Made by a program: the position numbers and the translations under genes. The notes under the pieces were generated by a model, which saw only the letters and a list, made by a program, of their open reading frames with translations, searched no databases and had not been told where the DNA came from. This document shows positions 19,629 to 43,056 of a DNA stretch of 64,000 nt, piece by piece. Every line of letters starts with the position of its first letter. Positions within the stretch are counted from its first letter, which is position 1. This stretch comes from Companilactobacillus allii (GTDB lineage Bacteria > Bacillota > Bacilli > Lactobacillales > Lactobacillaceae), in assembly GCF_001971585.1 (NCBI RefSeq), contig NZ_CP019323.1, positions 1,168,053 through 1,232,052 of the forward strand, given 5' to 3'.

Positions 19629-19740
19629 GCGATACAAAACACGGTTAATTTCCGAGCATTAACATAATATAGGGTGCCATTCACGAATGTGAATGACGCC
19701 CTATATTACGTTAAGCGGAAGAAATTGTGTTTTGTATCGC
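19629..19740 (+). repeat. structured repeat element, copy 1 (after nox)
   Basis: Outer stem of 14 perfect pairs (19629-19642 with 19727-19740), an inner conserved asymmetric stem AATTTCCG / CGGAAGAAATT with a 3-nt bulge, and an about 26-bp inner hairpin closing on TTCAC-GAAT-GTGAA. Starts two bases after the nox stop. Same architecture as copies at 27700 and 42943 although most stem bases differ. No T-run follows, so it is not a plain terminator. Confidence 0.8.
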
Positions 19741-19806
19741 GTTTCAGCAAGTTTGAGGATAAAAAAGAAAAGCACAAATTCTTTTGACCAGAAAAAAATA
19801 AGAAGA

Positions 19807-19834
19807 GAAGAAATTGTGTTTTGTATCGCGTTTC
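19807..19834 (+). repeat. partial duplicate of the right arm of copy 1
   Basis: 28 bases identical to 19718-19745, followed by similar sequence (CGGCAAGTTTAGGCAGAAA versus CAGCAAGTTTGAGGATAAA). The left arm at 19629 can therefore pair with either right arm. The left half is not duplicated. Confidence 0.8.
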
Positions 19835-19973
19835 GGCAAGTTTAGGCAGAAACAAATACAACTGAAACCAAATTCACAAATTATTCCATATTTACGCGGA
19901 ATTACTTCATATTATCAAAGTACTATATGTATATGGTCAAAAACGAAAAGGCCAAATCAAAGAGGTGAATCAT

Positions 19974-20075
19974 ATGAAGAGACATCCATTTTTAGCCATT
20001 GCCGGAGTTTCAGTCCTCGCAACTGTATGTGGCAGAGCGGTTAAGAACTATAACGCAAAGAAACTATTCAACTAA
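19974..20075 (+). CDS. small hydrophobic peptide (33 aa)
   Basis: ATG with SD AGAGGTGA. Sequence has a basic start (MKRHPF), one hydrophobic segment (LAIAGVSVLATVCG) and a basic end (AVKNYNAKKLFN). Too short for family assignment; composition fits a single-span membrane peptide. It lies between the copy-1 repeat region and another possible micro-gene. Could be a stress or toxin-like peptide, but nothing proves it is expressed. Confidence 0.45.
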   Translation: MKRHPFLAIAGVSVLATVCGRAVKNYNAKKLFN

Positions 20076-20130
20076 AACTTAAAAGTAAAATAACAAAAAC
20101 AATCAAAATAAAAATAAAGAGGTATCGATT

Positions 20131-20205
20131 ATGTCTAATAAAAAGATCAAAGGCTTGCGTCAGCAAGCCTTTTTTGGTGTAATCGGCTTGATTATATGGT
20201 ATTAA
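20131..20205 (+). CDS. possible 24-aa micro-peptide overlapping a terminator
   Basis: ATG with SD AAAGAGG; MSNKKIKGLRQQAFFGVIG then LIIWY: basic front, hydrophobic tail. A good hairpin with T-run (20151-20175) lies inside the frame, so either the frame is chance or the RNA is read through. Low confidence. Confidence 0.25.
   Translation: MSNKKIKGLRQQAFFGVIGLIIWY
20151..20175 (+). terminator. rho-independent terminator
   Basis: AGGCTTGC-GTCA-GCAAGCCT followed by TTTTT. Perfect 8-bp stem, ends the short transcript carrying the 33-aa peptide. Confidence 0.85.
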
Positions 20206-20245
20206 TTATTAGAATGAAGAGTAGCGTTTTACGGGAGTTTACTTG

Positions 20246-22801
20246 ATGATTAAAAAAAATCGTATCTTATATTATATAGGTGCTTTTGGTATAAATTTGG
20301 CCATAATATCAGTTATCTTTTGGATCAATGGGTTAGTTCCATTTGGAAATTATAACTTTTTGACCAGTGACTTGGGGACACAATACATTGCGTTTTTGAC
20401 AGAGTTAAGACGTCAATTGGTCAGTGGTAATTTTCATTTGTATTTATTCAGCCAATCCTTAGGAGATAATTTCTTTCCTATAATCAGTTATTATTTATTA
20501 TCGCCGTTTAATTTGTTACTGGTCTTTTTCAAAGCCCAAAGTGTACCGATCGCAGCTGATGTCATAATCATGTTGAAGATATCGACCATGGGTGTGACAA
20601 TGGCGTATTTCTTCAAACAATATTTCAAACAGTCGAATCCGTCCAACTACATATTCACCGTGGCTTACGGCTTTTGTGGATTTGTTGCTTCGTATTTTTA
20701 TGATCTCATGTGGCTAGATGCTTTAATTATGTTGCCGATTGTTGCCGTTGGAGTTATGCGAGTTATTCAACAGCATAAGTATGTTTTATATTATTTTTCG
20801 ATATTATTATCTATTATATTTAATTATTACTTAGGATATATGTTATGTATCTTCTCAGTTTGTTTCTTTATTTACTTGGCATTAGAGAACAATTTAATGA
20901 AGCAAAGTAATCGTTTCGTGATAATTAGGAATTATCTTATCACCTCAATATTGGCTGGGCTTAGTTCAGCAGTCGTACTCGTACCAACTTTTGCTGGGAT
21001 GTTGAAAACGGCGAAGACTTCGTTTGATGGCTTCAATTATTTACCATCAGCCAGTTTTGGATTTGAGGCATTTACTCAACTTGGCATAGGTGGCAATACC
21101 TTTACCCAGAGATTACAACATGGACCATCAGTTTTTATGACATCGACAATTCTGATTTTGTTGTTGAGTTATTTCTTTAGTGACCGTGTCGAAAAAATCG
21201 ACAAGAATCATTCGTTATTCTTAATAGGGATTTTATTAGCCAGTATGTTTATTACGACCTTCAACACAATATGGCATATGTTTCAAAATCCAGCCGGATT
21301 CCCGTTTCGAAATAGCTTTATCTTTTCATTTGCTTGCATATTTATAGCAAGAAAAGCCTTCTCGGCTGGTGTGTTTAAAGATACTTCAACAATTATTAAA
21401 GCTACTTGTACTGCCGGAGGACTAATTAGTATTGGATACGCTACTGAATGGTTGATTCCACGTTTTATTGAGAGAATGGGTTATGAAAGACCTGATAACG
21501 AATACAATAGCTATTATTTCTGGCTGAGTTTGATATGTATTGTCATATCGGGATTTTTGATCTATCTGTTCCAGAAGAATCATTACTTTGGAATTTTGAT
21601 TTTATTGATGGTTTCATTTGAAGGATTCTCCAATTTTAATTCGGTGTTGGGGACTGCTTATTTGGGTGATCAACGAGTATACAGTCATCAGTATTCACGT
21701 GAAAATGATATTTTAGAGGACGTAAAGCACAGTAGTCATCCGGGACACAGAATAGTTGTCTCTAAATCTGGATTGAATAAGGCTTTTCCAGAACAATACA
21801 ATAATTATAATGATCCAATATTGTTTAATATCAATGGATTGAGTCTTTATAGTTCGACACTCAATCAGGATACGATGATGATGATGAATAACTTAGGCTA
21901 TTTTAGCTTAAATGTTAGACGTGTGAGTTATTTTGGTGGGACAGCACTGACCAATGCACTTTATGGTGTTTATTTTGATGTAAGTCAGTTGAATAAGCTA
22001 TACAAGGTCAACGAGAATTACGATGCACCAACTTTGGGCTTTCTTGTTAACAAAGATGTCTACGATTTTCAGATGATACCAAATCGTGCCTTAGATAATC
22101 AGAATCGATTATGGCAGGATTTGAATGGAAATAATACTGAATATTTGAAGAATGCTTCGATCCAGAATATGTCGCAAGAAGATGTCAAAAAGAGAACAAA
22201 GTACATTTATCAGCTGAAAACTGAAGCAAGAGGACCGTTATACTTCTACGTTTCTCCATTCAATTACTATAGCTCAAAAATATACGTGAATGGTAAGCGT
22301 ATCAGCACTCCTCAAATCAAAGTTCAAAAGTCTGCCGTTATGGACTTGGGTGATTTTAAGAAAAATGAATCAGTCAAAGTTGAAATACTGACTAGCAATC
22401 CACTTGAAATCAATCCTAGCTACTTTAGGACCTTGGATTCAAAAGTATTTGAACCTACTGTTGATAAGTTTAGAGCCAATTCAATGAAAATATCGTCTGA
22501 TTTGAATCATGATACGATCAAAGGAACTATTAAAGTTAAGGATGCTTCACCGTTATTATTGAGTGTGCCATATGATAACGGTTGGAGCGCATATGATAAT
22601 GGAAGAAAAGTCGAAATACACAAGGTTGTCAGTGATTTGATGGCGATTGATCTTAGTAAGGGATATCATAAGATAGAGTTGAAATACCAAGTTCCTGGAT
22701 TGAAGTTGGGATGGATTATTTCAATTACTTCAATGATCACTTTTGCCTTATATTTTGGTTATGATAAATATAAGAATAAGAACAAAAGTCAAGTGAAATA
22801 A
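20246..22801 (+). CDS. YfhO-family multi-pass membrane protein (polymer glycosylation)
   Basis: 851 aa from ATG 20246 (SD GGGAG; a TTG at 20243 is adjacent). About 12 hydrophobic segments in residues 1-470, with polar loop TSDLGTQYIAFLTELRRQ after TM1 as in GT-C type enzymes, a large extracytoplasmic part at 480-820 and one last TM (about 823-842). YfhO proteins act with a GtrB/CsbB-type undecaprenyl-phosphate sugar transferase to move sugars onto lipoteichoic acid or other wall polymers outside the membrane. A GtrB-like gene is at 37386. Family call strong; acceptor is inferred. Confidence 0.85.
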   Translation: MIKKNRILYYIGAFGINLAIISVIFWINGLVPFGNYNFLTSDLGTQYIAFLTELRRQLVSGNFHLYLFSQSLGDNFFPIISYYLLSPFNLLLVFFKAQSVPIAADVIIMLKISTMGVTMAYFFKQYFKQSNPSNYIFTVAYGFCGFVASYFYDLMWLDALIMLPIVAVGVMRVIQQHKYVLYYFSILLSIIFNYYLGYMLCIFSVCFFIYLALENNLMKQSNRFVIIRNYLITSILAGLSSAVVLVPTFAGMLKTAKTSFDGFNYLPSASFGFEAFTQLGIGGNTFTQRLQHGPSVFMTSTILILLLSYFFSDRVEKIDKNHSLFLIGILLASMFITTFNTIWHMFQNPAGFPFRNSFIFSFACIFIARKAFSAGVFKDTSTIIKATCTAGGLISIGYATEWLIPRFIERMGYERPDNEYNSYYFWLSLICIVISGFLIYLFQKNHYFGILILLMVSFEGFSNFNSVLGTAYLGDQRVYSHQYSRENDILEDVKHSSHPGHRIVVSKSGLNKAFPEQYNNYNDPILFNINGLSLYSSTLNQDTMMMMNNLGYFSLNVRRVSYFGGTALTNALYGVYFDVSQLNKLYKVNENYDAPTLGFLVNKDVYDFQMIPNRALDNQNRLWQDLNGNNTEYLKNASIQNMSQEDVKKRTKYIYQLKTEARGPLYFYVSPFNYYSSKIYVNGKRISTPQIKVQKSAVMDLGDFKKNESVKVEILTSNPLEINPSYFRTLDSKVFEPTVDKFRANSMKISSDLNHDTIKGTIKVKDASPLLLSVPYDNGWSAYDNGRKVEIHKVVSDLMAIDLSKGYHKIELKYQVPGLKLGWIISITSMITFALYFGYDKYKNKNKSQVK

Positions 22802-22863
22802 CTAATTATTATAAATAAGGCGTATAGTTTTCAATAATTGGTTATTTATTATAGAATTTCAGT

Positions 22864-22877
22864 ATGAAACGCTTACA
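22864..22877 (-). promoter_or_regulatory. cre box upstream of glpK
   Basis: Minus-strand TGTAAGCGTTTCAT, 13 of 14 matches to TGWAARCGYTWNCW, 22 bases before the glpK start and downstream of a possible -10 (TATAGA, 22850). That position fits CcpA roadblock repression of glycerol use on glucose. Confidence 0.65.
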
Positions 22878-22889
22878 TTAAAGAGATGA

Positions 22890-24407
<1,518 letters not shown>

Positions 24408-24441
24408 AAGTTAATAATACTGGCTAAATGTGAGGATAAAA

Positions 24442-25947
24442 ATGGATAAAGAACAATATGTGTTAGCAATAGATGAGGGTACAACAACAACAAGGGCAAT
24501 TATCTTTGATCATACTGGTAAGAAAATAGTTGCGGCTAGACATCCAATTAGACAGATCATGCCAAATCCTGGTTGGGTCGAACATGATGCGACTGAGATC
24601 TGGAATGCGGTTCAAACTACTATTGCAACGGCGCTGATCGAATCAGGTATTAAACCTGACCAGATCAATTCGATCGGTATCGCCAGTCAACGTGAAACTA
24701 GTGTAATTTGGGACAAGAAGACAGGATTGCCAATTCACAACGCAATTGTTTGGCAAAGTCGTCAGACTTCAAAGCTTGCCAATGAATTGATCAAGGATGG
24801 TTATGAAGATGAGATTCATCAAAAGACCGGCTTGATCGTTAGTCCATATTTCTCTGCAACGAAGATTCGTTGGATTCTAGACCATGTGGATGGTGCGCAA
24901 GAACGTGCCGAAAATGGTGAATTATTATTTGGGACTATCAATACTTGGTTGTTGTGGCAATTAACTGATGGACAGAGCTTTTTAACGGACTATTCTAATG
25001 CGAGTCGTACGATGTTATTTAATATTAATGACTTGAAATGGGATACTAGCTTGTTAAAATTGTTCAATATTCCTGAAAAGATGCTTCCTGAAGTCCGTTC
25101 TAATTCAGAATTATTTGGAACTACTAAGAATTATCACTTCTATGGTTCAGAAGTTCCAATCACTGGGATGATCGGTTCTCAACAAGCTTCGTTGTTTGGA
25201 CAGATGGCCTTTGAGCCGGGGATGGTTAAGAATACTTATGGAACTGGTGCTTTCGCTGTTATGAACACTGGAAATAAACCGGCTCTTTCAGATAATAATC
25301 TTCTTACTACTATTGCTTATGGAATTAATGGAGAAATAAAATACGCTCTAGAAGGTAGTATCTTTGTGGCCGGTGGTGCACTTCAATGGCTTCGTGATGG
25401 AATGAGAATGATCAAGAATACTCCTGATACTGATGCCTTTGCGAAGAAATCCACTAGTCAAGATGAAGTATATGTTGTTCCGGCATTTTCTGGATTAGGT
25501 GCACCTTATTGGGATGACGCAGCTCATGGTACTGTGTTTGGAATTACTCGTGGTACAACAAACGATGATTTCATTAAGGCCACTTTACAAGCCATTGCCT
25601 ACCAAACTAAAGATATTATCGACACGATGAATTCGGATTCTGGTATACCGATCGAGGTCTTGAAGGTCGATGGGGCCGCCACTAAGAACGATTATCTGAT
25701 GAAATTCCAATCTGATCTATTAGGAATTCCGCTACAAGTGTCATCTGAATTAGAGACGACGTCTCTTGGTGCCGCATTCTTAGCCGGTCTAGGTAATGGA
25801 TATTGGAAAGATATCGAAGACATTAAAAAGAATTACAAAACTGGCACAGTTTATGAACCTGATATGGATGAGAAAACTAGAGATAACTTATATGATGGTT
25901 GGAAAGAAGCCGTGAATGCCACTATGGCCTTCAAACATCATAGATAG
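24442..25947 (+). CDS. glycerol kinase paralogue lacking the catalytic aspartate
   Basis: 501 aa from ATG 24442 (SD GTGAGGA; in-frame upstream ATA/GTG positions lie in the SD). Close paralogue of the preceding glpK over its whole length, with phosphate motif [12 protein letters not shown], Arg84-Glu85, Trp104 and Tyr136 kept. The residue matching catalytic Asp245 is Ser246 ([13 protein letters not shown]), from TCT at 25177-25179, and KVDGGAANN has become KVDGAATKN. The frame is intact, so selection on another role (regulatory, altered substrate or hetero-oligomer) is possible. Likely co-transcribed with glpK; 34-base gap. Confidence 0.85.
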
Positions 25948-26074
25948 AGATAGATGGTACTTTTACTGACAAAAGTCAGTCCTATATTATGCTTCAAATT
26001 CAAGTAAACTTGACTTTATTCACACGTTTATTGGTAATTGAACTGCTTTTTTCAGAAAATTGAATAATTACATA
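25948..26074. other. intergenic region after the glpK pair
   Basis: A short hairpin ACTGAC-AAAA-GTCAGT (25965-25980) lacks a T-run. No open frame of interest. Confidence 0.4.
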
Positions 26075-26110
26075 AATAAGAGCTTATATTAAAAGACTCT
26101 TATTTTTTTT
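26075..26110 (+). terminator. terminator upstream of the peptide transporter
   Basis: AATAAGAGCTT and AAGACTCTTATT form an imperfect stem followed by eight Ts. Likely ends the glpK transcript. Confidence 0.75.
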
Positions 26111-26151
26111 GTTGATATAACAACATTTCTGATTTAAATATTAAAAAAGTT

Positions 26152-26180
26152 TTGACAGATTATCTATAAGAGCTTAATAT
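26152..26180 (+). promoter_or_regulatory. promoter of the POT transporter
   Basis: TTGACA (26152-26157), 17-bp spacer, TAATAT (26175-26180); a consensus -35 and near-consensus -10, about 38 bases before the start codon. Confidence 0.8.
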
Positions 26181-26217
26181 AAGTCTATCGTTGTGTAATG
26201 TGAGGAGAGAATTTTTA

Positions 26218-27693
26218 ATGGATGATAAGAAGAAGGACCGAGGTTTCTTCGGACAACCTATAGGTCTGCGAACTTTATTCTTAACTGAATTCTGGGAAAG
26301 ATTCAGTTATTATGGTATGCGAGCCATCTTACTTTTCTATATGTACTATGCAATAGATAAGGGTGGACTTGGTATGAACCAAGTCACGGCCGCATCAGTT
26401 ATGTCTATATACGGATCACTTGTTTATATGTCCAGTGTTATTGGTGGATATATCAGTGATAGAATCTTAGGTGCCAGAAGGACTGTCTTCTGGGGTGGGG
26501 TATTGATCATGCTTGGTCATATCGCATTATCATTCCCATTAGGGGAATCTGGATTATTCCTTTCAATTGGATTGATCACTATTGGTACTGGTTTATTGAA
26601 ACCAAATGTTTCTGAAATGGTCGGTGGATTATATACAGATGATGATCCTCGTCGTGATTCTGGATTTAGTATTTATGTCATGGGTATCAACTTGGGTTCA
26701 CTTATTGCACCACAAGCTGTTAGTGTAATGTGGCATAGTTTTAGTTTCCACGCTGGATTCTCATTGGCCGCCATTGGTATGTTTATCGGACTTATTGTTT
26801 ACTGGTGGGATGGTAAGAACCTTCCAGATACAAGTTTGAAAGCTCCAGATCCAATTTCTGGACCAGAATTAAAACAATTTTATAGACGTGTGACATATGG
26901 AGTAGTTGCAATTATTATTATTGTTGCTATCATGGCATTCGCTAGTGCATTAACTGTTGATAACTTTATTATTATCTTGAGTGTTCTTGGTATTGCCTTG
27001 CCAGTTGGTTACTTTGTAATGATGCTGACAAGTAAAAAGGTAACAAAGATCGAACGCTCACGTGTTGTTGCTTATATCCCATTATTTATTGCTGCTGCAA
27101 TTTTTTGGGCAATTGAAGAACAAGGTTCAGTTGTTTTGGCATTATTTGCCGCAGAACAAACACAACTACACTTTGCAAACTTCAGTATTTCAGCACCACA
27201 ATTCCAGATGCTTAACCCATTTTTCATCATCATTTATTCACCAATATTTGCATGGTTATGGCTTAAGTTAGGTAAGAGACAACCATCTTCACCTTCTAAG
27301 TTCTGGATGGGTCTTGTAGCCACAGCTGTTTCATACTTTGTACTTATGATTCCTCTAGTTGGCTTAAGTCCAGCAGGGAAAGTTAATCCGCTATGGTTAG
27401 TTCTAAGTTGGGGTATTATTGAAATTGGTGAAATGTTGATTTCTCCAGTTGGTTTGTCAGCTACTACTAAATTAGCTCCTAAGGCATTCTCGTCACAAAT
27501 GATGAGTATGTGGTTCTTAGCTGATTCAGCCGGACAAGCAGCTAATGCTCAACTTGTTAAATTATTCGAACCTGGTAACCCAAGTAACGAAATGATGTTC
27601 TTTGGTGTTACTGGTATCGTTACTCTTGTTGTAGGTGTTCTTTTGGCTATCTTAGTTCCTAAGATCAAACCACTTATGAAGGGTGTTAATTAA
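26218..27693 (+). CDS. dtpT: POT-family di-/tripeptide:proton symporter (DtpT-like)
   Basis: 491 aa from ATG 26218 with SD GTGAGGAGA. The family E..ER motif is visible as EFWERFSYYGMRAILLFYMY on TM1, and a second POT signature around residues 75-165 (GGYISDRILGARRTVFWG, GTGLLKPNVSEMVGGLY). About 14 hydrophobic segments; EEQGS on TM7 is a conserved proton/peptide site. Imports di- and tripeptides for this amino-acid-auxotrophic type of bacterium. Single gene with its own strong promoter; a structured repeat follows the stop. Confidence 0.92.
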   Translation: MDDKKKDRGFFGQPIGLRTLFLTEFWERFSYYGMRAILLFYMYYAIDKGGLGMNQVTAASVMSIYGSLVYMSSVIGGYISDRILGARRTVFWGGVLIMLGHIALSFPLGESGLFLSIGLITIGTGLLKPNVSEMVGGLYTDDDPRRDSGFSIYVMGINLGSLIAPQAVSVMWHSFSFHAGFSLAAIGMFIGLIVYWWDGKNLPDTSLKAPDPISGPELKQFYRRVTYGVVAIIIIVAIMAFASALTVDNFIIILSVLGIALPVGYFVMMLTSKKVTKIERSRVVAYIPLFIAAAIFWAIEEQGSVVLALFAAEQTQLHFANFSISAPQFQMLNPFFIIIYSPIFAWLWLKLGKRQPSSPSKFWMGLVATAVSYFVLMIPLVGLSPAGKVNPLWLVLSWGIIEIGEMLISPVGLSATTKLAPKAFSSQMMSMWFLADSAGQAANAQLVKLFEPGNPSNEMMFFGVTGIVTLVVGVLLAILVPKIKPLMKGVN

Positions 27694-27699
27694 ATCAGA

Positions 27700-27811
27700 G
27701 TGTTAAAATGCACGGGTAATTTCCGAGCATTAACGTAAATAGTTTCGGTATTCACGAAAGTGAATATCGGAATTATTTTTGTTAAGCGGAAGAAATTGTG
27801 CATTTTCACAC
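27700..27811 (+). repeat. structured repeat element, copy 2 (after the POT transporter)
   Basis: Outer arms 27700-27713 and 27798-27811 pair at 13 of 14 positions. The inner motif TAATTTCCGAGCATTAAC / GTTAAGCGGAAGAAATT is nearly identical to copy 1, and the inner hairpin closes on TTCAC-GAAA-GTGAA, a GNRA loop. Differences inside the inner stem are mostly G-U compatible. Begins 6 bases after the gene's stop. Confidence 0.8.
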
Positions 27812-27939
27812 GTTTTCAATGCAAACTTGAGTGAAAACAAGGTTTCATCACAACTTTTTTTATTTGTAAAAAAATTATTTTAAAAATACTTGAAATGTAT
27901 AAATATTTTCGGTAATATTATTAAGTCGAGTAAAGACAT

Positions 27940-28022
27940 GGAGGGGTAGCGAAGTCTGGCTAAACGCGGCGGACTGTAAATCCGCTCCTTCGGGTTCGGT
28001 GGTTCGAATCCACTCCCCTCCA
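27940..28022 (+). tRNA. tRNA-Tyr (GTA)
   Basis: Acceptor GGAGGGG pairs with CCCCTCC, discriminator A; anticodon loop CTGTAAA gives GTA; long variable arm TCCGCTCCTTCGGGTTCGGT region; T-loop GGTTCGAATCC. 83 nt, CCA not encoded. Confidence 0.97.
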
Positions 28023-28027
28023 TTAAT

Positions 28028-28099
28028 TGGGTTATAGCCAAGCGGTAAGGCAATGGACTTTGACTCCATCATGCGCTGGTTCGAATCCAGCTAACCCAA
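28028..28099 (+). tRNA. tRNA-Gln (TTG)
   Basis: Acceptor TGGGTTA pairs with TAACCCA; anticodon loop CTTTGAC gives TTG; T-arm TGGTTCGAATCCA. 72 nt, five bases after tRNA-Tyr. In this lineage it is charged first with Glu and amidated by GatCAB, encoded at 57-60 kb. Confidence 0.97.
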
Positions 28100-28106
28100 T
28101 ATGGTT

Positions 28107-28138
28107 AAAGGACTGATAAAATATCAGTCCTTTTTTTT
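28107..28138 (+). terminator. terminator of the tRNA pair
   Basis: AAGGACTGATA-AAA-TATCAGTCCTT followed by a run of Ts. Perfect stem. Confidence 0.92.
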
Positions 28139-28207
28139 ATTATTTGGCAAAACTACTGTATAATCATAACTAATAGTGCGATCAACTGCTCAAAGGAGAA
28201 ATTCAAA

Positions 28208-28909: not shown

Positions 28910-28987
28910 AGTCAGTTATTCTTTTAATACGTAATTTAGAGTAATATTGAAACAACTTGTTTCAAAATATTTAGCTAGGAGTCATTT

Positions 28988-30382: not shown

Positions 30383-30383
30383 T

Positions 30384-32255: not shown

Positions 32256-32312
32256 TTTTCGTGTTAAAATAAAAACTGTAAATTTTATACCATCAAAAAT
32301 CAAGGAGATATG

Positions 32313-33785: not shown

Positions 33786-33788
33786 TTA

Positions 33789-34607: not shown

Positions 34608-34643
34608 AAAATTGGACATTCGTTTTTGGAATGTCCAATTTTT
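34606..34643 (+). terminator. terminator after nadE
   Basis: AAAAATTGGACATT pairs with AATGTCCAATTTTT around CGTTTTTGG. Starts at the nadE stop codon. Confidence 0.9.
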
Positions 34644-34703
34644 AAAAATGATTAAAATATAGTACGCAAGTATGTTAAGATATGCGCAAAGAGGTGTTTA
34701 AAC

Positions 34704-35897: not shown

Positions 35898-35932
35898 AAA
35901 GCAAAATCAACAAGGATTATTAAGAGGGAAAT

Positions 35933-37384
35933 ATGCTTAACAAATTTCAAGATATTATAAGTAAAATTTTATTGATCTGTGTTGCTATATTTACTTCAGT
36001 AGTGTTTGTTCAAATGATAATTTATTACAGTAAAACTTATTTATCGTATGAACCAGTATTTAATGTACTGGTTCTTATTTGTGCAATCATTTTGACACTT
36101 TTAGCGGCACTAGTTCTTATCAGGATTTCTGATGAGAATAAAATAAAGAATAGATTAGTTCTATACACATTGATTGCAATATTTGCAATCGTAGCAATTA
36201 TTTGGATAAATGTGGTCCCTAGCACTCAAATAAGTGATTTTAGTGCTTTTTGGCAATATTCAGCAAAGGCTCTATCCGGGAAGCCAATTACGATCACTGA
36301 CAATGATTACTTTGCTAAATGGGCCTATCAAACTGGATTCTTAGTATACGTGATGGCTGTTGTAAAGGTATTTGGCCAACATATTATAGCTATCCAGTTA
36401 TTGAATGTCTTATATCAATCATTAATATTAGTGATGATCTATAAGCTAGTTGTAAAAATATTCAATAATATCAAGATGGCTCGTTTGGCAGTATTATTAC
36501 TGATGATCGATCTCGATTGGTTTGCTTTGAATAGTCAAGCTTGTAATCAATACCTAGGAACACTGTTGTTCTTAGTCACTTTTTATCTAGTCATGTTCAA
36601 TAAATATTGGTCTTATGTACTGGCTGGTGTAACATTAGCTATTGGTAGTATTATTAGACCAATTGGTCCAGTTATTATAGCTGGAATAGTAGTGTATGGA
36701 ATTATTTATATGCTAATTAAAAATAATAAGTTTGATATTCATGCAATCTGGAAGTTATTAATAACTCTAGCCATATATTTTGCGATATTCAGTGGAGCCA
36801 GTGGACTGATCAAAGCTACAGGACTTAATGAATATGGATTAACTAATCGCGATTCCGAATGGAAATTCGTGACCGGATTGGACTATAATTCTAAGGGTGT
36901 TTATGATCAAACTATGGTGGACCAATTTGATTTGAATGCTAGTCGTAGCCAGATGAGTAAAAAAGAATATCAAATTATTGATAAACAAGTTAAGTTTCTA
37001 AATGAAAGTCCGAAGAGATGGATCAGTTTATTCTGGGCTAAAAACGCCACTTTGTGGGCTAAGCGGTCAACGGCCACGGACTTTACGGAGTTTGTGAAGA
37101 TTCATTCAGCACGTGCTACCAATATAATGAATCTATTAGCTTATGTCGGAAGTATAATTTTGATAATTTTCTCATGGATCGGTTCATTAGAATTATTCAA
37201 GAAAAAGTTTAGTAAACGTATTTATTTGTTATTATTAACATTGATGGCATATGCTGTAGTTCAATTATTGATCGAGGTTCAAGGAAGATATCGAATTGAA
37301 TTGTTACCAGTTATCACAATCCTTGGTAGCGTTGGGTTATATAAAGTAGTGAAATGGATTGACACAAAATTGAGGAGTCGATAA
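35933..37384 (+). CDS. GT-C-type membrane glycosyltransferase (ArnT/PMT-like)
   Basis: 483 aa, SD AGAGGG. About 11-12 hydrophobic segments; first extracytoplasmic loop has the acidic pair DFSAFWQYSAKALSG as expected for polyprenyl-phosphate-sugar dependent GT-C enzymes, and the second half has a soluble tail-loop (KKEYQIIDKQVKFLNESPKRW). The next gene, one base after its stop, encodes a polyprenyl-phosphate sugar transferase that would make its donor. Together they probably decorate a wall polymer. Substrate not known. Confidence 0.75.
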   Translation: MLNKFQDIISKILLICVAIFTSVVFVQMIIYYSKTYLSYEPVFNVLVLICAIILTLLAALVLIRISDENKIKNRLVLYTLIAIFAIVAIIWINVVPSTQISDFSAFWQYSAKALSGKPITITDNDYFAKWAYQTGFLVYVMAVVKVFGQHIIAIQLLNVLYQSLILVMIYKLVVKIFNNIKMARLAVLLLMIDLDWFALNSQACNQYLGTLLFLVTFYLVMFNKYWSYVLAGVTLAIGSIIRPIGPVIIAGIVVYGIIYMLIKNNKFDIHAIWKLLITLAIYFAIFSGASGLIKATGLNEYGLTNRDSEWKFVTGLDYNSKGVYDQTMVDQFDLNASRSQMSKKEYQIIDKQVKFLNESPKRWISLFWAKNATLWAKRSTATDFTEFVKIHSARATNIMNLLAYVGSIILIIFSWIGSLELFKKKFSKRIYLLLLTLMAYAVVQLLIEVQGRYRIELLPVITILGSVGLYKVVKWIDTKLRSR

Positions 37385-37385
37385 A

Positions 37386-38357
37386 TTGTTTAAGCTAAGT
37401 ATTGTTGTACCTTGTTATAACGAACAGGAAGTACTTCATGAGACAACAAAGGAATTAACACAAATCGTTAACAACCTTATTAATGAGAAAAAAATAACGG
37501 CTACCAGTAAAGTGGTGTTCGTTGATGATGGTAGTAGAGATAAGACTTGGAGTTTAATTGATGAGTATTCCAGCGAAAATGATCTGATCAGTGGTGTTAA
37601 ATTGAGTCGTAATTTTGGACATCAAGGAGCACTACTCGCTGGTGTAACAGCTGCTTCTAAGGATTCTGATGCAGTTATCACTATTGATGCTGATCTGCAA
37701 GATGATGTTAATGCGATTCCTAAAATGGTCGATAAATTTATCGAGGGCTCAGAAGTTGTCTATGGCGTTCGTAATAATCGTGATACAGATAGTTCGTTTA
37801 AACGTGGTACAGCTGAACTCTTCTACAAGTTCATGGGATGGTTAGGTGTTAAACTGGTACCTGATTCTGCTGACTTCCGCTTGATGAGTAAGCGAGCCTG
37901 TGAAGTGTTATTGAGTTATAAGGAAACGAATTTATTTTTGCGTGGAATCGTTCCAATGGTTGGTTTCAAGTCTGATAAAGTATATTATGCGAGAAAAGAA
38001 AGATTCGCTGGAGAATCAAAATATCCACTAAAAAAGATGATAAAGTTTGCGGCAGACGGAATTACGTCATTTTCAATTGTTCCTATTAAGATGATAATGG
38101 GATTAGGATTTTTTATAGTGTTGATCAGTATCTTCTTACTGATATATACCATTGTCCAAAAGATAAACGGACAAGTTGTATCTGGTTGGCCATCAATGAT
38201 GATCTCGATTTGGGCACTTGGTGGAGTACAACTGATCTGTATTAGTGTGATTGGTGAGTACGTTGGTAAGATATTCAGTGAAGTTAAGCACCGTCCAAGA
38301 TTTACTATTGAACGAGATATTTATACAGAGAAAACTTTGAAAGAAAATAAGAGGTAG
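37386..38357 (+). CDS. GT2 polyprenyl-phosphate glycosyltransferase (GtrB/CsbB-like)
   Basis: 323 aa, TTG start with SD GAGGAG. Cytoplasmic GT-A domain: LSIVVPCYNEQEVL, VFVDDGSRDKTW, DADLQDDVNAIPKM with the metal-binding DAD, SADFRLMSKRA, ERFAGESKYPLKKM. Two C-terminal TM segments (about 238-260 and 272-296). Transfers a sugar from UDP-sugar to undecaprenyl phosphate for flipping and use by GT-C or YfhO-type partners, as the adjacent gene and the one at 20246. Confidence 0.9.
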   Translation: MFKLSIVVPCYNEQEVLHETTKELTQIVNNLINEKKITATSKVVFVDDGSRDKTWSLIDEYSSENDLISGVKLSRNFGHQGALLAGVTAASKDSDAVITIDADLQDDVNAIPKMVDKFIEGSEVVYGVRNNRDTDSSFKRGTAELFYKFMGWLGVKLVPDSADFRLMSKRACEVLLSYKETNLFLRGIVPMVGFKSDKVYYARKERFAGESKYPLKKMIKFAADGITSFSIVPIKMIMGLGFFIVLISIFLLIYTIVQKINGQVVSGWPSMMISIWALGGVQLICISVIGEYVGKIFSEVKHRPRFTIERDIYTEKTLKENKR

Positions 38358-38363
38358 TTATTT

Positions 38364-38795
38364 ATGAATGCAGCACAAAAGAAGGCCATGGTTTATGGCA
38401 ATTTGATCAATAACACAGTTCAATCTATTCAAGATGAACAAGACAAGTTGAATCCAGAATTTGAAACATTGAGAAAAGCCTTGGATCGTGATCAGATCGA
38501 ACGTATTGATTCTGTTGAATATACAAAGATTATGCATGACTTCAAAAAGGGAACAGATTCTTATCAAGATCTATTGACCAAACTACAAAAGGCCAAGGCA
38601 CCAGCAAGATACATGGGAACACACATGTCTTTAGTAGCAGCGTTCAAAAAGTACGTTGAAGGTTGTACTGAAATGACTGAAAGTATTGGTGAAGATCAAA
38701 AAATCGATCGTGAGAAATTCAATAATGCTGAGAAAGTCCAAGATGAAAACATGGACAAGTTCTCTAAGTACATGCAAAAGATGACTGAAATTTAA
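38364..38795 (+). CDS. conserved hypothetical helical protein
   Basis: 143 aa, charged and almost entirely helical, with Lys/Glu-rich heptads; no signal peptide or TM. Contains PARYMGTHMSLVAAFKKYVE and a Met-rich tail. No family recognised. Six bases after the GT2 stop and overlapping the SprT-like gene by one base, so co-expressed with both; function cannot be inferred from that. Confidence 0.7.
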   Translation: MNAAQKKAMVYGNLINNTVQSIQDEQDKLNPEFETLRKALDRDQIERIDSVEYTKIMHDFKKGTDSYQDLLTKLQKAKAPARYMGTHMSLVAAFKKYVEGCTEMTESIGEDQKIDREKFNNAEKVQDENMDKFSKYMQKMTEI

Positions 38796-39256
38796 TGAAC
38801 AATGAAGATCTAACTAGATTAATACAAAAGGTTTCCCAAGATAATTTTGGGAAACCTTTTGTTCACAAAGCCTTTTTTAATAATAGATTGCGTACTACCG
38901 GTGGAAGGTTTCATTTGAAAGATCGGCATATAGATATTAATCCTAAGGTGTATCAACAATATGGAACAGAAGAGTTAGTTGGTGTTATTAAACATGAACT
39001 GTGCCATTATCACTTGTATAACGCAGGGATGCCATCACAACACAAAAGCCGAGAATTCAAAGTTTTGTTGAAGCAAGTGGGTGGATCTAGATTTGCACCA
39101 CCATTGAATAATTCGAATAAACATAAGACCCTTCATATATATGAGTGTTCCAATTGCCATACAGTTTATCAACGTGTTAGAAAGATAGATACTAGACGAT
39201 TCGTCTGTGGAAAATGCCGTGGTAAATTAAAATTCATTAAAGATATCAATATTTAA
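38795..39256 (+). CDS. SprT-like zinc metalloprotein
   Basis: 153 aa. HExxH motif HELCH at 67-71 after the typical TTGGRFHLKDRHIDINPKVY, followed by HYHLYNAGMPSQHKSREFK, and a C-terminal zinc ribbon with CSNC and CGKC. The SprT family (YdcK in Bacillus) is related to Spartan proteases; the bacterial role is poorly known. ATG overlaps the previous stop. Length agrees with the lactobacillus family. Confidence 0.9.
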   Translation: MNNEDLTRLIQKVSQDNFGKPFVHKAFFNNRLRTTGGRFHLKDRHIDINPKVYQQYGTEELVGVIKHELCHYHLYNAGMPSQHKSREFKVLLKQVGGSRFAPPLNNSNKHKTLHIYECSNCHTVYQRVRKIDTRRFVCGKCRGKLKFIKDINI

Positions 39257-39317
39257 TTACTTTAATTAAACTTATACTTGATATTGAAATTAATGAACTG
39301 TAGAATATTACTTGTAC

Positions 39318-39403
39318 GCGGGTATGGCGGAATTGGCAGACGCGCAAGACTAAGGATCTTGTGGAGAATTATCTCCGTGGAAGTTCGAATCTTCTTACCC
39401 GCA
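39318..39403 (+). tRNA. tRNA-Leu (AAG)
   Basis: Acceptor GCGGGTA pairs with TACCCGC, discriminator A; anticodon loop CTAAGGA gives AAG, which needs A34-to-inosine editing; long type II variable arm; T-loop AGTTCGAATCT. 86 nt, no encoded CCA. Confidence 0.95.
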
Positions 39404-39418
39404 TAAATAAGTATTAAA

Positions 39419-39452
39419 AGAGACTTACTATATTAAAGTAAGTCTTTTTTTT
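39419..39452 (+). terminator. terminator after tRNA-Leu
   Basis: AGACTTACT / AGTAAGTCT with a 7-nt AT loop, followed by eight Ts. Confidence 0.9.
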
Positions 39453-39578
39453 ATATCCAAAATGTACAATAATTATAATATTAAAGCAAATATTTAATTT
39501 GTTGTATACATATTTTTTGTATTTTGACATTATCCTGTCTAATATTGATTGTAGTCTAAGATAAAGGAAGACAGAAAA

Positions 39579-40088
39579 GTGAAAAATAAAACTATTATTA
39601 CAATGATAATAGCTTTTCTCGTTATGAGCTTTTCTTCACTACAGTATAATACGGTGCAAGCTGAATCAGTAACTGGTGCAGGTTATCTTGCCGAAGTAAG
39701 TTCAAACCCAGGAAAGCTATATAATTCTTCAGATGAATATATTGGGAAAACATTACCGTATGGCAGCAAATGGAAGGTAGGTAAAGTCTTAGATGTCAAT
39801 GGAATACAATTATTTAGAGTTGGATATGATGAATATCTAAGTTCAAAAGACAGTTATCGTTATCAATTACGCCCAGAAGTAATTGAAGTGGAAGATCCTA
39901 GTGGTGAGGTTGATGTTTATAATCACAACTTTGTTGAAAGCACATCCTTAGCATTGAAATCGGACACTTATTGGTATTCTGATACTGTTATCTACACATC
40001 TTCTGGTATGCCATTTGTCAGAGTAGCTACAGGTGAGTATGTTCCAATGTATGAAGTTATCTCACAGAGTTTTACTGAGTCATTTTAA
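39579..40088 (+). CDS. small secreted SLAP-like surface protein A
   Basis: 169 aa, GTG start. Signal peptide residues 1-28 (TIITMIIAFLVMSFSS, cleavage after VQA). The mature part holds two SLAP-like units: 'KLYNSSDEYIGKTL..GSKWKV..FRVGYDEYLS' and 'VDVYNHNFVES..L.SDTYWYS..FVRVATGEYVPM'. Such modules bind wall polymers in S-layer-associated proteins. About 40% alike over its length to the next gene's product, with identical order of motifs (RPEVIEV, VYNHNF, YTSSGMPF). Own terminator downstream. Confidence 0.8.
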   Translation: MKNKTIITMIIAFLVMSFSSLQYNTVQAESVTGAGYLAEVSSNPGKLYNSSDEYIGKTLPYGSKWKVGKVLDVNGIQLFRVGYDEYLSSKDSYRYQLRPEVIEVEDPSGEVDVYNHNFVESTSLALKSDTYWYSDTVIYTSSGMPFVRVATGEYVPMYEVISQSFTESF

Positions 40089-40117
40089 ATCTAATAAAAA
40101 AATAAAATTAAATAATA

Positions 40118-40160
40118 AAAAAGCATGAAATCGTTTTAAATTGCGATTTCATGCTTTTTA
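40118..40160 (+). terminator. terminator after SLAP-like gene A
   Basis: AAAAAGCATGAAATCG pairs with CGATTTCATGCTTTTT, loop TTTTAAATTG. Symmetric, so may work in both directions. Confidence 0.9.
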
Positions 40161-40399
40161 ATTCAAATTATTAAAAAATTAATAATAATAAGTAGACCGT
40201 TTGTATTGTAATTGTTTAGTAAATTTTGTACTATAAGGGTAACAATAATATAAGGCAAAATGCCAATTGCCAACAAATAGTTATTGTGTGTGATTTGCTT
40301 AAGTTTTAAGTTCTATGCCAGTAGAACTTTTTGTGTACTTGAATTTGTGTGTTTTTTTAATATCTAAAAATAAAATAATATATATACGGGGAAACTATT
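40161..40399. other. intergenic region between SLAP-like genes
   Basis: AT-rich, with the hairpin at 40308 and an apparent SD GGGGAAA before 40400. No open frame of interest. The promoter of gene B must lie here or upstream. Confidence 0.4.
40308..40334 (+). terminator. hairpin with TGCCAG loop, copy A
   Basis: AAGTTCTA-TGCCAG-TAGAACTT followed by TTT. Located about 65 bases upstream of SLAP-like gene B, so it could be a leader attenuator. Same hairpin recurs at 40986. Confidence 0.6.
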
Positions 40400-40915
40400 A
40401 TGAAAAAAAATGCGATTGTTTTATTAGCTATGGCATTATTTAGTACAAGTGCTGCAGTTGTGCCAGCAACTACAACAGAAGCTAAGAGCGTTAGCTCTAG
40501 TTATAAGGTCGAAGTAAGTACAGATTCTGATTCCGATGCTACTTTATATAATGCATCAGGTGACCAGACAAGTAATACTGTATCTGACAGCAGCAAGTGG
40601 TCAGTAAGTAACATTTCCAATATTAACGGTAAAGATTATTACAAAGTTTCATCAGACGGTTATATCAGTTCCGATGATAGCTTTTTATACAAAAAACGCC
40701 CCGAAGTTATAAAGGTAGCCACAGACCATGAGGTCTCTGTTTACAATCATAAGTTCGAGGAGAGTACTAAAGTCAAATTAGAAGCAGGTAGTAAGTGGTA
40801 CTCAGATAGTTCTATTTATACATCTGCCGGTATGCCATTCTTAAGAGTAGCTCCGGATACATATGTCGCTATGTTTGATGTTGTTGAACAATCATTTACT
40901 TCTTCTGTAAATTAA
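40400..40915 (+). CDS. small secreted SLAP-like surface protein B
   Basis: 171 aa, ATG after GGGGAAA. Signal peptide to about residue 28 (AIVLLAMALFSTSAAVVPA, cleavage TEA/K). Two SLAP-like units as in protein A (YKVSSDGYISS; VYNHKFEES...FLRVAPDTYVAMF). The first unit is Ser/Asp-rich. Tandem paralogue of the 39579 gene, with its own leader and terminators, so probably regulated separately. Confidence 0.8.
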   Translation: MKKNAIVLLAMALFSTSAAVVPATTTEAKSVSSSYKVEVSTDSDSDATLYNASGDQTSNTVSDSSKWSVSNISNINGKDYYKVSSDGYISSDDSFLYKKRPEVIKVATDHEVSVYNHKFEESTKVKLEAGSKWYSDSSIYTSAGMPFLRVAPDTYVAMFDVVEQSFTSSVN

Positions 40916-40944
40916 TTTAATTTCTATTTATGTTTTGTGTGTGT

Positions 40945-40980
40945 GATATTCACAGTGCCAGCTGTGAATATCTTTTTTTT
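40945..40980 (+). terminator. terminator after SLAP-like gene B, TGCCAG loop
   Basis: GATATTCACAG-TGCCAG-CTGTGAATATC with a following T-run of eight or more. Perfect 11-bp stem, with the same hexaloop as the flanking hairpins. Confidence 0.9.
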
Positions 40981-40985
40981 TGCTT

Positions 40986-41011
40986 AAGTTCTATGCCAGT
41001 AGAACTTTTGA
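40986..41011 (+). terminator. hairpin with TGCCAG loop, copy B
   Basis: AAGTTCTA-TGCCAG-TAGAACTT-TT, identical to copy A at 40308, preceded by TGCTTAAG and followed by ATTTGTGTGTTT in both. Five bases after the preceding terminator's T-run. Confidence 0.7.
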
Positions 41012-41279
41012 TGTATCTCTTATTTGTGTGTTTATATATACGAGGTATCTATCTTTATTACAGTTACTATAGTACTATCATTTGCTCGATAGTTTTGTTC
41101 ACATTTTGTAAGAGACTTTTTCCTAAAGTGAAATAAATATAAAATCCCTTATTCGGAAGATAAATATAAGAGTTTCTTATAATGTTCTTAGCTTATTTTA
41201 AATACATAAATATAAATTGTATATTATTATTTACGGGGAACGGGAAATTCTAAGTTAAAAACGAGAGGGAGTATACAAA
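41012..41279. other. intergenic region upstream of the arylsulfotransferase gene
   Basis: AT-rich; no plausible gene seen. A frame at 40930-41136 is Cys/Leu-rich and overlaps two terminators, so it is not taken as real. The SD AGAGGGAG precedes the next start. Confidence 0.4.
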
Positions 41280-42938
41280 TTGAGGAAGAAGCTAGCTTTT
41301 ATAGCTACTTTTTTGGCGTGCTTTTCGCTAATTGCAGTAGCCTGCTCTAAAACTAGTTCTAAAAGTGACAATGGTAAGATTTTGAGTACTGCTCAGATTA
41401 AGAAGAATATTGGCTCAAAGCTGATTACGACCAGAGAGAGTGCGCAGGATCCTTTAACCAAGAAGTATAAGAAAATCGTTAAGGATACATCTTACACGTT
41501 TGATAATCCATATGTTAAGTTGAATCCATACAAGACTTCACCACTGACTGCATTGGTTATCTTTTACACTGATAAGAATGCCAAAGTAAGCTATACAGTT
41601 GAAGGCGAAAGTGACGATACTAGTATCACAAATACAGTGAATGGTGATTATTCAAAGACTCATCAAGTTCCAGTAGTTGGTTTATATGCGAACAAAACTA
41701 ACAAAGTTACTGTAAATATTACATATGAAGATGGAACTACTGATAGTAAAGAAATAGAAATCAAGACGGATTCACTTCCTAAGTATGTTAAGAATGCAAC
41801 TATCACAGTTAAGAATACTGATAAGTCCAAGATGGATATTGGTGACAATAAGTTGACTATTATTAATAGAACAACTAAGGAACCGTTTGCCATTGATGCT
41901 GATGGAAACGTTAGATGGTATTCAACTAATTATTCACAACATACAATAGAACAAATCTCTAATGGTCATATGTTGATTTTGACTAAGAAAAAGGAAAGTT
42001 CAAAAGTTTACAATGATTTAATTGAAACTGATGTTCTAGGAAGAGTTTATAAGGAATACAGTTTTGACCCCGGTACAAAATATAATGATAGTGGTAATTC
42101 CAAAGATGAAACAACTGTGATCCATCACGATTTGGTGGAATTACCAAACCACGACATCCTAGCAACTGTTAGTGACGGATCCAAGTACAAAGAAGATGTC
42201 ATGGTTCAGATCTCTCATAAGACGGGTAAAGTAGTCAAAGTTATTGACCTTAAAAAGATACTACCTAGTTCAATGTATAAGAATTATAAAGCCGGATCTG
42301 ATAACAAGGTTGACTGGTTCCATCAAAATGCAGTCGATTATGATTCTTCCGATAACAGTATTATGATATCTGGTCGTAATCAGGATATGATCATGAAACT
42401 TGATTATAAGACTGATAAGATTATTTGGATTTATAGTGGTAAGAAAAAAGCCACTTGGCCAAAGAAATATCGTGATAAGATATTGACCCCAACACAAGGA
42501 ACAACAATCACCGGCGGTCAACATGGATTGTATCTATTGAAACATGATGGTGACAGTGAAGATATTATTCTTTATGACAACAATATCGATGTTACAAATG
42601 GAAATAAGAAGACATCTGGTAAGTATTCACAGGCAGTTGAATATAATATTGATACTAAGAATATGACAATCGATCAAACTTGGTCATATGGTAAGAGTCT
42701 AGGCAAAGCTAACTTTACAAGTATCATTGGTTATGCCGAAAGAGAATCAAATGGTAATACGTTGGTTGACTTCGGATTTAAAGATAATGGTAAGGAAAGT
42801 AATATTATCGAAGTAGATTCATCAGGTAATCAAGTGTTTAATGTGACTGTTAAAAATTCCGCTTCCAAAGCATATGCTTATCGTGCATATAGAGTTCCGT
42901 TCTATTCATCAAGTTATGTCTTTGATGTTAATGATTAA
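41280..42938 (+). CDS. lipoprotein of the arylsulfotransferase (ASST) family
   Basis: 552 aa, TTG start after GAGAGGGAG. Signal peptide with lipobox IAVAC, Cys22. Residues 70-170 are an N-terminal beta domain (KVSYTVEGESDDTS, NKVTVNITYEDGTTDSKEI); the rest is a six-bladed propeller of the ASST type with His motifs VIHHDLVELPNHDI, DWFHQNAVDYDSSDN, ISGRNQDMIMKLDY and TTITGGQHGLYLL. ASSTs move sulfate between phenolic compounds; the catalytic His cannot be assigned with certainty. Surface-anchored. Single gene, followed by structured repeat copy 3. Confidence 0.82.
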   Translation: MRKKLAFIATFLACFSLIAVACSKTSSKSDNGKILSTAQIKKNIGSKLITTRESAQDPLTKKYKKIVKDTSYTFDNPYVKLNPYKTSPLTALVIFYTDKNAKVSYTVEGESDDTSITNTVNGDYSKTHQVPVVGLYANKTNKVTVNITYEDGTTDSKEIEIKTDSLPKYVKNATITVKNTDKSKMDIGDNKLTIINRTTKEPFAIDADGNVRWYSTNYSQHTIEQISNGHMLILTKKKESSKVYNDLIETDVLGRVYKEYSFDPGTKYNDSGNSKDETTVIHHDLVELPNHDILATVSDGSKYKEDVMVQISHKTGKVVKVIDLKKILPSSMYKNYKAGSDNKVDWFHQNAVDYDSSDNSIMISGRNQDMIMKLDYKTDKIIWIYSGKKKATWPKKYRDKILTPTQGTTITGGQHGLYLLKHDGDSEDIILYDNNIDVTNGNKKTSGKYSQAVEYNIDTKNMTIDQTWSYGKSLGKANFTSIIGYAERESNGNTLVDFGFKDNGKESNIIEVDSSGNQVFNVTVKNSASKAYAYRAYRVPFYSSSYVFDVND

Positions 42939-42942
42939 AAGA

Positions 42943-43056
42943 GTGTGAAAATACGCGTTTAACTTTCGAGTATAATGCAAAAAGCAAGTAGATATTCACG
43001 TAAGTGGATGTCTACTTGCTTTTTTATTAAACGGAAAAAGTTGCGTTTTTTCACAC
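42943..43056 (+). repeat. structured repeat element, copy 3 (after the ASST gene)
   Basis: Outer arms 42943-42956 and 43043-43056 pair at 13 of 14. Inner motif AACTTTCG / CGGAAAAAGTT corresponds to the bulged stem of copies 1 and 2. The inner hairpin is the longest of the three, with GCAAGTAGA..TTCAC-GTAA-GTGGA..TCTACTTGC, closing on a GNRA loop, and its right arm ends in six Ts, so here it can also act as a terminator between the two convergent genes. Confidence 0.8.

What the first reader, a model, noticed from the sequence alone, without database searches (positions are those of the whole stretch)
19629..43056. Three dispersed double-hairpin elements with compensatory base changes, each directly after an unrelated gene
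Seen in sequence: 19629-19740, 27700-27811 and 42943-43056 share one plan. A 14-bp outer stem (arms GCGATACAAAACAC, GTGTTAAAATGCAC, GTGTGAAAATACGC, each with its own complement), a conserved bulged inner stem (AATTTCCG with CGGAAGAAATT; AACTTTCG with CGGAAAAAGTT), and a long apical hairpin closing on CAC-GAAT/GAAA/GTAA-GTG. Sequences of the outer arms and apical stems differ strongly yet stay paired, including G-U changes, which is what selection on RNA structure produces. All start 2-6 bases after a stop codon (nox, POT transporter, ASST), and a conserved about 20-nt tail follows (CGTTTTCACTGCAAGTTTGA type). Only copy 3 has a proper T-run, so termination alone does not explain the conservation. 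It could be a mobile palindromic repeat, a 3'-UTR stability or processing element, or a small RNA family. Weinberg-type Lactobacillales motifs (Lacto-1, -2, -3) are possible known relatives; I could not compare.
Basis: partly seen in the sequence, partly recalled or inferred. Interest (0 to 1): 0.8.

Follow-up and report, generated by a model that had tools for sequence, protein, structure and literature searches.

The report
Dispersed hairpin elements at gene ends
The three odd hairpins belong to a large family of short repeats in lactic acid bacteria, absent from the RNA-family library searched, that usually sit right behind the stop codon of unrelated genes, where a related species has ordinary transcription stop signals.

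Summary
The three elements belong to a family with at least 141 matches, a few partial, in this 2.53 Mb genome, 34 of 36 genomes of the genus, own included, and 126 of 301 genomes of the family in 19 of 40 genera. Named carriers are Lactobacillaceae. Covariation is very strong (0.760 against 0.203 in shuffles). No Rfam 15 family matches.

Placement is the main finding. In 106 of 137 copies a same-strand gene stops within -15..+10 nt of the element (background 2.8%; antisense 11 of 137); in 59 the stop codon lies inside the element. At 19 sites compared with one related species, that species has a predicted ordinary terminator at 14 and, by eye, another subtype of element at 2; none of the 14 terminator sequences is found here.

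Best explanation: a dispersing double-hairpin element that takes over the terminator slot of genes. In this genome it usually carries a terminator-like hairpin itself (117 of 137). Outside the genus the T-run is mostly absent (12 of 83), so termination does not define the family. How it spreads is unknown; RAYT-type transposase and reverse transcriptase genes do not track it within the genus.

The parts
19625..19744 (+). copy 1, full double hairpin; its first bases complete the TAG stop codon of the oxidoreductase gene 18278-19627
19629..19642 (+). copy 1 outer 5' arm GCGATACAAAACAC
19727..19740 (+). copy 1 outer 3' arm GTGTTTTGTATCGC (14 of 14 paired)
19665..19708 (+). copy 1 apical hairpin; no T-run of 4 or more, no internal terminator by script
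19741..19762 (+). copy 1 conserved tail GTTTCAGCAAGTTTGAGGATAA
19807..19846 (+). downstream repeat of copy 1's 3' half with the same private arm
27696..27815 (+). copy 2, full double hairpin, behind the POT transporter gene 26191-27693
27700..27713 (+). copy 2 outer 5' arm
27798..27811 (+). copy 2 outer 3' arm (13 of 14 paired)
27736..27780 (+). copy 2 apical hairpin with T-tract, terminator-like by script (-20.8 kcal/mol) though not in the simple scan
27812..27833 (+). copy 2 conserved tail
42939..43060 (+). copy 3, full double hairpin, between the arylsulfotransferase gene 41280-42938 (+) and a convergent gene 43106-44488 (-)
42943..42956 (+). copy 3 outer 5' arm
43043..43056 (+). copy 3 outer 3' arm (13 of 14 paired)
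42979..43025 (+). copy 3 apical hairpin with A-tract and T-run, terminator-like (-26.6 kcal/mol)
43057..43078 (+). copy 3 conserved tail

Best explanation
This is a family of short (about 120 nt plus tail), non-coding, dispersing double-hairpin elements of Lactobacillaceae that take over the terminator slot of genes: the few bases around and just behind the stop codon, mostly in sense orientation. Shown here: the shared plan, the covariation, the genome- and family-wide dispersal, the stop-codon-adjacent sense placement of most copies, and that a relative has predicted ordinary terminators, or another subtype of element, at most of the compared places. Inferred: in this genus the apical hairpin with its A- and T-tracts ends transcription in both directions, and the outer and inner stems form in any read-through RNA and shape or protect the mRNA 3' end. 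Inferred: copies spread by an unidentified trans-acting or replication-based process that recognises or rebuilds hairpins, and are kept mainly where they leave a gene with a usable 3' end. Outside the genus the hairpin usually lacks a T-run, and 26 of 65 last-in-array copies have a separate predicted terminator within 200 nt, so there it would be a 3'-UTR double hairpin.
For: Family size: 141 matches in the genome, 34 of 36 genus genomes, 126 of 301 family genomes. Covariation: 45 own copies 97.4% of cells paired, score 0.460 against 0.139 in shuffles; 114 distinct rows of other species 91.7% paired, 0.760 against 0.203; sliding the partners collapses both. G.U exceeds A.C on the sense strand: outer stem 42:16 here and 44:21 elsewhere, apical stem 92:47 here and 147:17 elsewhere. 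Placement: 106 of 137 sense, 11 of 137 antisense (10 of these also sense), background 2.8%; the stop codon of 59 genes lies in the element. Independent annotation: in a Pediococcus damnosus plasmid a degenerate copy follows the TAA of an annotated ABC-transporter gene directly and is itself followed by an ordinary terminator-like hairpin (borders by eye). Exchange: of 19 sites compared with G012, G012 has a terminator at 14 by script and another element subtype at 2 by eye; no terminator sequence is found here beyond 9-10-nt hits. Turnover: at nox 2 of 30 genomes have a sense element at the stop; at asnS 6 of 30 by model, plus one and two remnants by eye. Terminator-like hairpin inside the element: 117 of 137.
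Against: No RNA data; termination is predicted only. 31 of 137 own copies have no qualifying sense stop at the element. Relatives also carry copies that break the rule: behind nox, antisense matches in G018, G028 and G032 and a sense match about 330 nt away in G002. 20 of 137 own copies have no internal terminator by my criterion; of the 19 compared sites three have neither an internal nor a nearby one (504351, 531473, 637167). A scan with other settings found a T-run hairpin inside 103 of 137 and neither inside nor nearby in 32. The simple window scan reported only copy 3 as terminator-like. T-runs are rare outside the genus (12 of 83). The inverse link between an apical T-run and a separate terminator is weak (27 of 140 against 34 of 97, p = 0.01 pooled, not significant within any of the three groups). 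No movement, target-site duplication or mobilising gene was seen; the direction of the exchange is argued only from other genomes. G.U/A.C p-values are not corrected for kinship, and G.T is also better tolerated than A.C in DNA hairpins (recalled).
Confidence: 0.7

Rival explanations
1. Purely selfish palindromic repeat (MITE- or REPIN-like): the hairpin is conserved because a transposase needs it as single-stranded or cruciform DNA, and the position behind genes only reflects where insertions are tolerated.
For: Many copies, subfamilies with near-identical members at unrelated sites (97% between 1187672 and 2382674), tandem copies, lineage-specific presence, and antisense copies in some relatives.
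Against: Outer arms vary widely between copies, unlike fixed terminal repeats (110 distinct arm pairs among 139 rows). Sense placement is 106 of 137 against 11 of 137 antisense, tighter than tolerance alone suggests. The RAYT/Y1 domain is found in 18 of 36 genus genomes and is absent from element-rich G012, G023, G024, G032 and G034. No target duplication was recognised, though borders could not be read well.
Confidence: 0.35
2. RNA-level 3'-UTR element: the double hairpin protects or processes the mRNA 3' end (for example an RNase III or exonuclease-blocking structure), termination being incidental.
For: G.U over A.C on the sense strand, T-run mostly absent outside the genus, full or partial element upstream of a separate terminator-like hairpin in some relatives (G010 and G018 at asnS, G012 behind the POT gene, a Pediococcus plasmid, by eye).
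Against: No RNA data; here most copies carry their own T-run hairpin, so termination would stop before the 3' arm is made.
Confidence: 0.35
3. Arm complementarity is produced by mutation (template switching within quasi-palindromes at replication), not by selection.
For: Each copy has its own arms; 19 of 113 elements have an exact downstream copy of their 3' arm unit (a few of these belong to tandem full elements), showing local copying.
Against: Conserved bulges inside the stem are not erased; G.U exceeds A.C, which a strand-symmetric process does not predict.
Confidence: 0.15
4. The element is the ancestral 3' end and ordinary terminators in relatives are its deletion products.
For: Deletion remnants at asnS in G018 and G027 (by eye) and an antisense remnant in G032 behind nox.
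Against: At nox 2 of 30 genomes carry a sense element at the stop, at asnS 6 of 30 by model.
Confidence: 0.1

Closest known systems
SPRITE repeats of Streptococcus pneumoniae (PMC3049150; passages read)
   Same: Dispersed terminator-like repeats near the 3' ends of genes; [quoted passage not shown]
   Different: SPRITE is described as an 18-bp duplex with a U-rich tract, 30 copies in the genome analysed; here a nested double hairpin with conserved bulges and covarying arms, at least 141 matches, spread over a whole bacterial family.
BOX and RUP repeats of pneumococcus (same paper, passages)
   Same: Small interspersed repeats that fold tightly with paired ends; BOX is modular.
   Different: The paper gives BOX and RUP terminal repeats and target duplications; none was recognised here, and placement here is mostly stop-codon adjacent and sense.
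REP/BIME palindromes of enterobacteria (PMC2965389; passages read)
   Same: Palindromic repeats between genes; the paper cites work in which BIMEs act as bidirectional terminators.
   Different: REP elements are tied to RAYT transposases (recalled); here that domain does not track the element. No sequence relation was tested.
MRSC-65-2 motif (PMC11109978; passages read)
   Same: Single long covarying stem, dozens of copies per genome, thought there to be a selfish element.
   Different: Reported from diverse phyla with a UYCCGG repeat; ours was found in one family of the order, apart from 2 marginal apical-only hits. Sequences were not compared.
Inverted DNA uptake sequences used as terminators (named in passages)
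   Same: A repeat doubling as terminator behind genes.
   Different: Those are 10-bp words; no such word was looked for here.

Membership tests
Rfam families including the Lacto motifs | score at or above the curated threshold | tested here: not met
   Only three tRNAs in the window; 23 listed matches in 5 element loci at E<=10 are all below their thresholds and none is a Lacto motif
REPIN/REP with RAYT | RAYT/Y1 transposase in the genome, tracking copy number | tested here: not met
   PF01797 in 18 of 36 genus genomes, one match in this genome, absent from element-rich G012, G023, G024, G032, G034 (element counts)
MITE | fixed terminal inverted repeats shared among copies | tested here: not met
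   110 distinct arm pairs among 139 rows; only the very ends AGAG and CGTTT are largely shared
MITE | target-site duplication | tested here: inconclusive
   At compared sites the native terminator is missing, so borders cannot be read
Intrinsic (Rho-independent) terminator | stable hairpin followed by T-run | tested here: met
   Own genome 117 of 137; not so family-wide: T-run of 4 or more in 12 of 83 copies outside the genus
Intrinsic terminator | RNA 3' ends at the T-run | not testable with these tools
   No transcript data
SPRITE-type terminator-like repeat | sequence homology with SPRITE | not tested
   No SPRITE sequence was fetched
Element mobilised by a resident reverse transcriptase | reverse transcriptase in the genome | tested here: not met
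   PF00078: 0 matches in this genome, 12 of 36 genomes in the genus
Integron attC site | integron integrase and attC core sites | not tested
   Considered from memory because of hairpins behind genes; no integrase search was run

The most novel reading that the evidence does not exclude
A new class of mobile 3'-end cassette: structure-recognised hairpins, free to change sequence as long as they pair, that repeatedly invade the stop codon/terminator junction of genes in sense orientation and exchange one terminator for another, spreading by a mechanism that is neither RAYT- nor resident-RT-based.
Probability: 0.3. Interest if true: 0.85.

Novelty: new variant of a known kind. Interest (0 to 1): 0.66.

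Why it matters
If true, gene 3' ends in a major group of food and gut bacteria are a moving part: terminators are swapped by a dispersing hairpin family that also rewrites the last codons of some genes. It would give a natural, covarying set of more than a hundred copies in one genome for testing how terminators, 3'-UTR hairpins and mRNA decay work together, and it poses a clear open question of what moves it. It also shows that a common structured element family found no match in Rfam 15.

Tried and rejected
Rfam kinship: none. Mobilising partner: RAYT/Y1 domain and reverse transcriptase do not track the element; no other transposase family was searched. Phage or plasmid origin: copy 1 gave no match in plasmids or phages by blastn and a core pattern none in viral contigs; a copy of genus g14 (L174) gave none in plasmids or phages; a copy of genus g38 (L165) hit 3 Pediococcus damnosus plasmids at 75.6% over 70% of the query. 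Exact core pattern in genome contigs: nothing at first; a looser one gave 24 stretches. A translation-coupled switch (a ribosome at the stop covering the 5' arm) was considered; ordinary terminators in G012 begin at similar distances by eye, so the spacing needs no such idea. My first terminator finder for relatives was too strict (0 of 23 and 1 of 83) and was replaced, where shuffled flanks gave 2 of 60. For asnS most other genomes' genes are only about 50% identical to this one, so that comparison is about the site, not close kinship. My first eye reading of the nox region missed antisense copies in G018 and G028, found with the model. Dropped rows: one of 20 blocks (936212, a paralogue), leaving 19; 11 of 150 rows and 8 of 119, overlapping mostly antisense matches; 5 more identical copies (106 of 111 used). 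One search kept all 119 rows (114 distinct), antisense rows included. In one search, 113 of the full copies were used, those whose 3' arm a pattern could locate.
Full report
Check of the observation. Each folds as one long hairpin with z-scores of -12.7, -11.0 and -9.8. The genes in front are a pyridine-nucleotide-disulphide oxidoreductase, a POT-family transporter and an arylsulfotransferase, so they are unrelated. Small corrections are given in the observation check. No Rfam 15 family matches the window beyond three tRNAs; five element loci at E<=10 gave 23 listed matches, all below their family thresholds.

Size of the family. blastn with copy 1 found 61 places in the genome, full copies and downstream half copies. 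A covariance model from 45 own copies (R1) gives 141 matches at E<=0.001 in the genome, a few of them partial; 150 of 1454 candidates were scored, so this is a lower bound. It matches 34 of 36 genomes of the genus, own included, 126 of 301 of the family in 19 of 40 genera, and all 30 genomes from 18 other genera that I picked because they had already matched. In 295 genomes of the order 16 match; 14 are of this family and the other two match only the apical hairpin, marginally; how many of the 295 are outside the family is not shown. Named carriers are Lapidilactobacillus achengensis, L. luobeiensis, L. gannanensis, Ligilactobacillus salitolerans and one uncultured Lactobacillus, and Pediococcus damnosus plasmids; these genera are Lactobacillaceae.

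Anatomy. Consensus in this genome: AGAGYG, a variable arm, CACG, a short bulge, AATTTCCGAGCATTAAC, a variable apical hairpin, GTTAAGCGGAAGAAATTG, the complementary arm, CGCGTTT, then a tail. The inner segment is recognisable across genera. Downstream, 38 of the 113 elements whose 3' arm could be located have another copy of the 3' arm unit at 80% identity or more within about 320 nt (0 of 113 with shuffled flanks); in 29 of the 38 the element's own arm fits better than the best of 15 arms of other elements. Some of these are tandem full elements, others half copies. One 5' arm could therefore pair with more than one 3' arm. What that does is unknown.

Structure is maintained. On 45 own copies 97.4% of cells pair and 32 of 44 pairs show two-sided changes, covariation 0.460 against 0.139 in shuffles. 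On 114 distinct rows from other species and genera 91.7% pair and 41 of 44 pairs show two-sided changes, 0.760 against 0.203; sliding the partner by one to three columns destroys this. The second alignment was fitted to the model, which favours it, but the slid and shuffled controls are far away. Wobble pairs exceed their mirror image: outer stem G.U 42 to A.C 16 over 110 distinct arm pairs here and 44 to 21 over 101 elsewhere; apical stem 92 to 47 here and 147 to 17 elsewhere. This favours constraint on the sense strand. It is not corrected for kinship, and single-stranded DNA would show the same direction.

Placement. Of 137 full copies, 106 have a same-strand reading frame of at least 70 codons ending within -15..+10 nt of the element start; 2.8% of positions in the held sequence satisfy this. 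The mirror arrangement on the other strand occurs in 11, of which 10 also have the sense gene; 31 of 137 lack a qualifying sense stop. In 59 the stop codon lies wholly or partly inside the element, 37 of them as the TAG formed by a T in front of the element's AG. Among other members of the genus 15 of 23 and in other genera 26 of 83 are so placed; some of the rest are second or later copies of tandem arrays, others have no adequate frame in the stretch held. In a Pediococcus damnosus plasmid a degenerate copy follows the TAA of an annotated ABC-transporter gene on the same strand and is followed by an ordinary terminator-like hairpin (borders by eye; the blastn match itself begins 15 nt after the gene).

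Exchange with ordinary terminators. I compared 19 element sites with the orthologous sites in G012, the genome with the most similar nox (95%) (20 blocks, one paralogue dropped). By script G012 has a terminator hairpin at 14; two more (490766, 577708) look like terminators by eye but fell under the T-run rule; 1210991 shows neither. At two sites (531473 and window copy 2) G012 carries, by eye, a different subtype of element at the same place. None of the 14 terminator sequences is found in this genome's flank beyond hits of 9-10 nt; at 590388 the G012 terminator is, by eye, the apical part of an antisense element remnant. Of six sites where the element's first bases form the stop, four begin inside the codon that is TAA in G012, at 531473 both species have TAG, and at nox the element cut off the last codons instead (by eye). 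With the model, elements in sense orientation directly at the stop of nox are found in G000 and G021 of 30 genomes; G018, G028 and G032 have antisense matches in the neighbourhood and G002 a sense match about 330 nt away. At asnS the model finds one in 6 of 30 genomes (G000, G008, G010, G031, G032, G034), by eye also in G021, with deletion remnants in G018 and G027. So presence turns over fast compared with the genes.

Termination. By a folding criterion 117 of 137 own copies contain a terminator-like hairpin; shuffled flanks give 2 of 60. 28 of 137 have a separate one within 200 nt downstream. Outside the genus a T-run of 4 or more is present in 12 of 83 copies, and 26 of 65 last-in-array copies have a separate terminator. 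The element is therefore a likely terminator here but not by definition.

What moves it. Nothing found. PF01797 transposases are missing from several element-rich genomes; reverse transcriptase is absent from this genome. No viral contig or phage record matched the queries tried.

Literature. Seven searches listed no paper that I recognised as being on this family. Passages read: PMC2267715 (its L. johnsonii family Lac-1 is said to lie within coding sequences), PMC3049150 on SPRITE, BOX and RUP, PMC2965389 on mobile attenuators and BIMEs, PMC11109978 on MRSC-65-2.

Verdict. A real, large, structurally constrained, dispersing element family that mostly occupies the terminator slot of genes in Lactobacillaceae; a new variant of the known kind of small interspersed palindromic repeats, with an unusually precise placement and an unexplained way of spreading.

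Noticed in passing
own genome 900-1000 kb (partly L041-L044): 20 of the 141 matches lie in the 900-1000 kb bin and none between 1.6 and 1.8 Mb: a patchy distribution not explained.
   Followed up: no
own genome 841067, 843357, 914546, 1352202: The last residues of four otherwise different reading frames (KSVTERE, ESVTERE, ESVTTRE, KSVTTRG) are encoded by the element.
   Followed up: partly
G012 stretches L295 about 8.5 kb and L301 about 10.2 kb; also behind nox in G010, G011, G034: A second dispersed GC-rich repeat (GCTTCCGGT...GAGCCGA...CTCGA type) stands behind genes in relatives (by eye).
   Followed up: no
L212 (G032, behind nox) and L258, L259 (G027, G018, behind asnS): Apparent deletion derivatives in which the element's core is missing and the arms are joined or truncated.
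   Followed up: partly
L224, L233 (G018, G028, behind nox): Copies in antisense orientation behind a gene, an exception to the sense placement.
   Followed up: partly
own genome 820845-821225, 298723-299081, 1023805-1024067; L174, L283: Head-to-tail tandem arrays of two or three elements, overlapping or separated by a few bases.
   Followed up: no
window 27940-28099: Copy 2 stands between the POT gene and two tRNA genes, so a terminator there would also shield the tRNAs.
   Followed up: no
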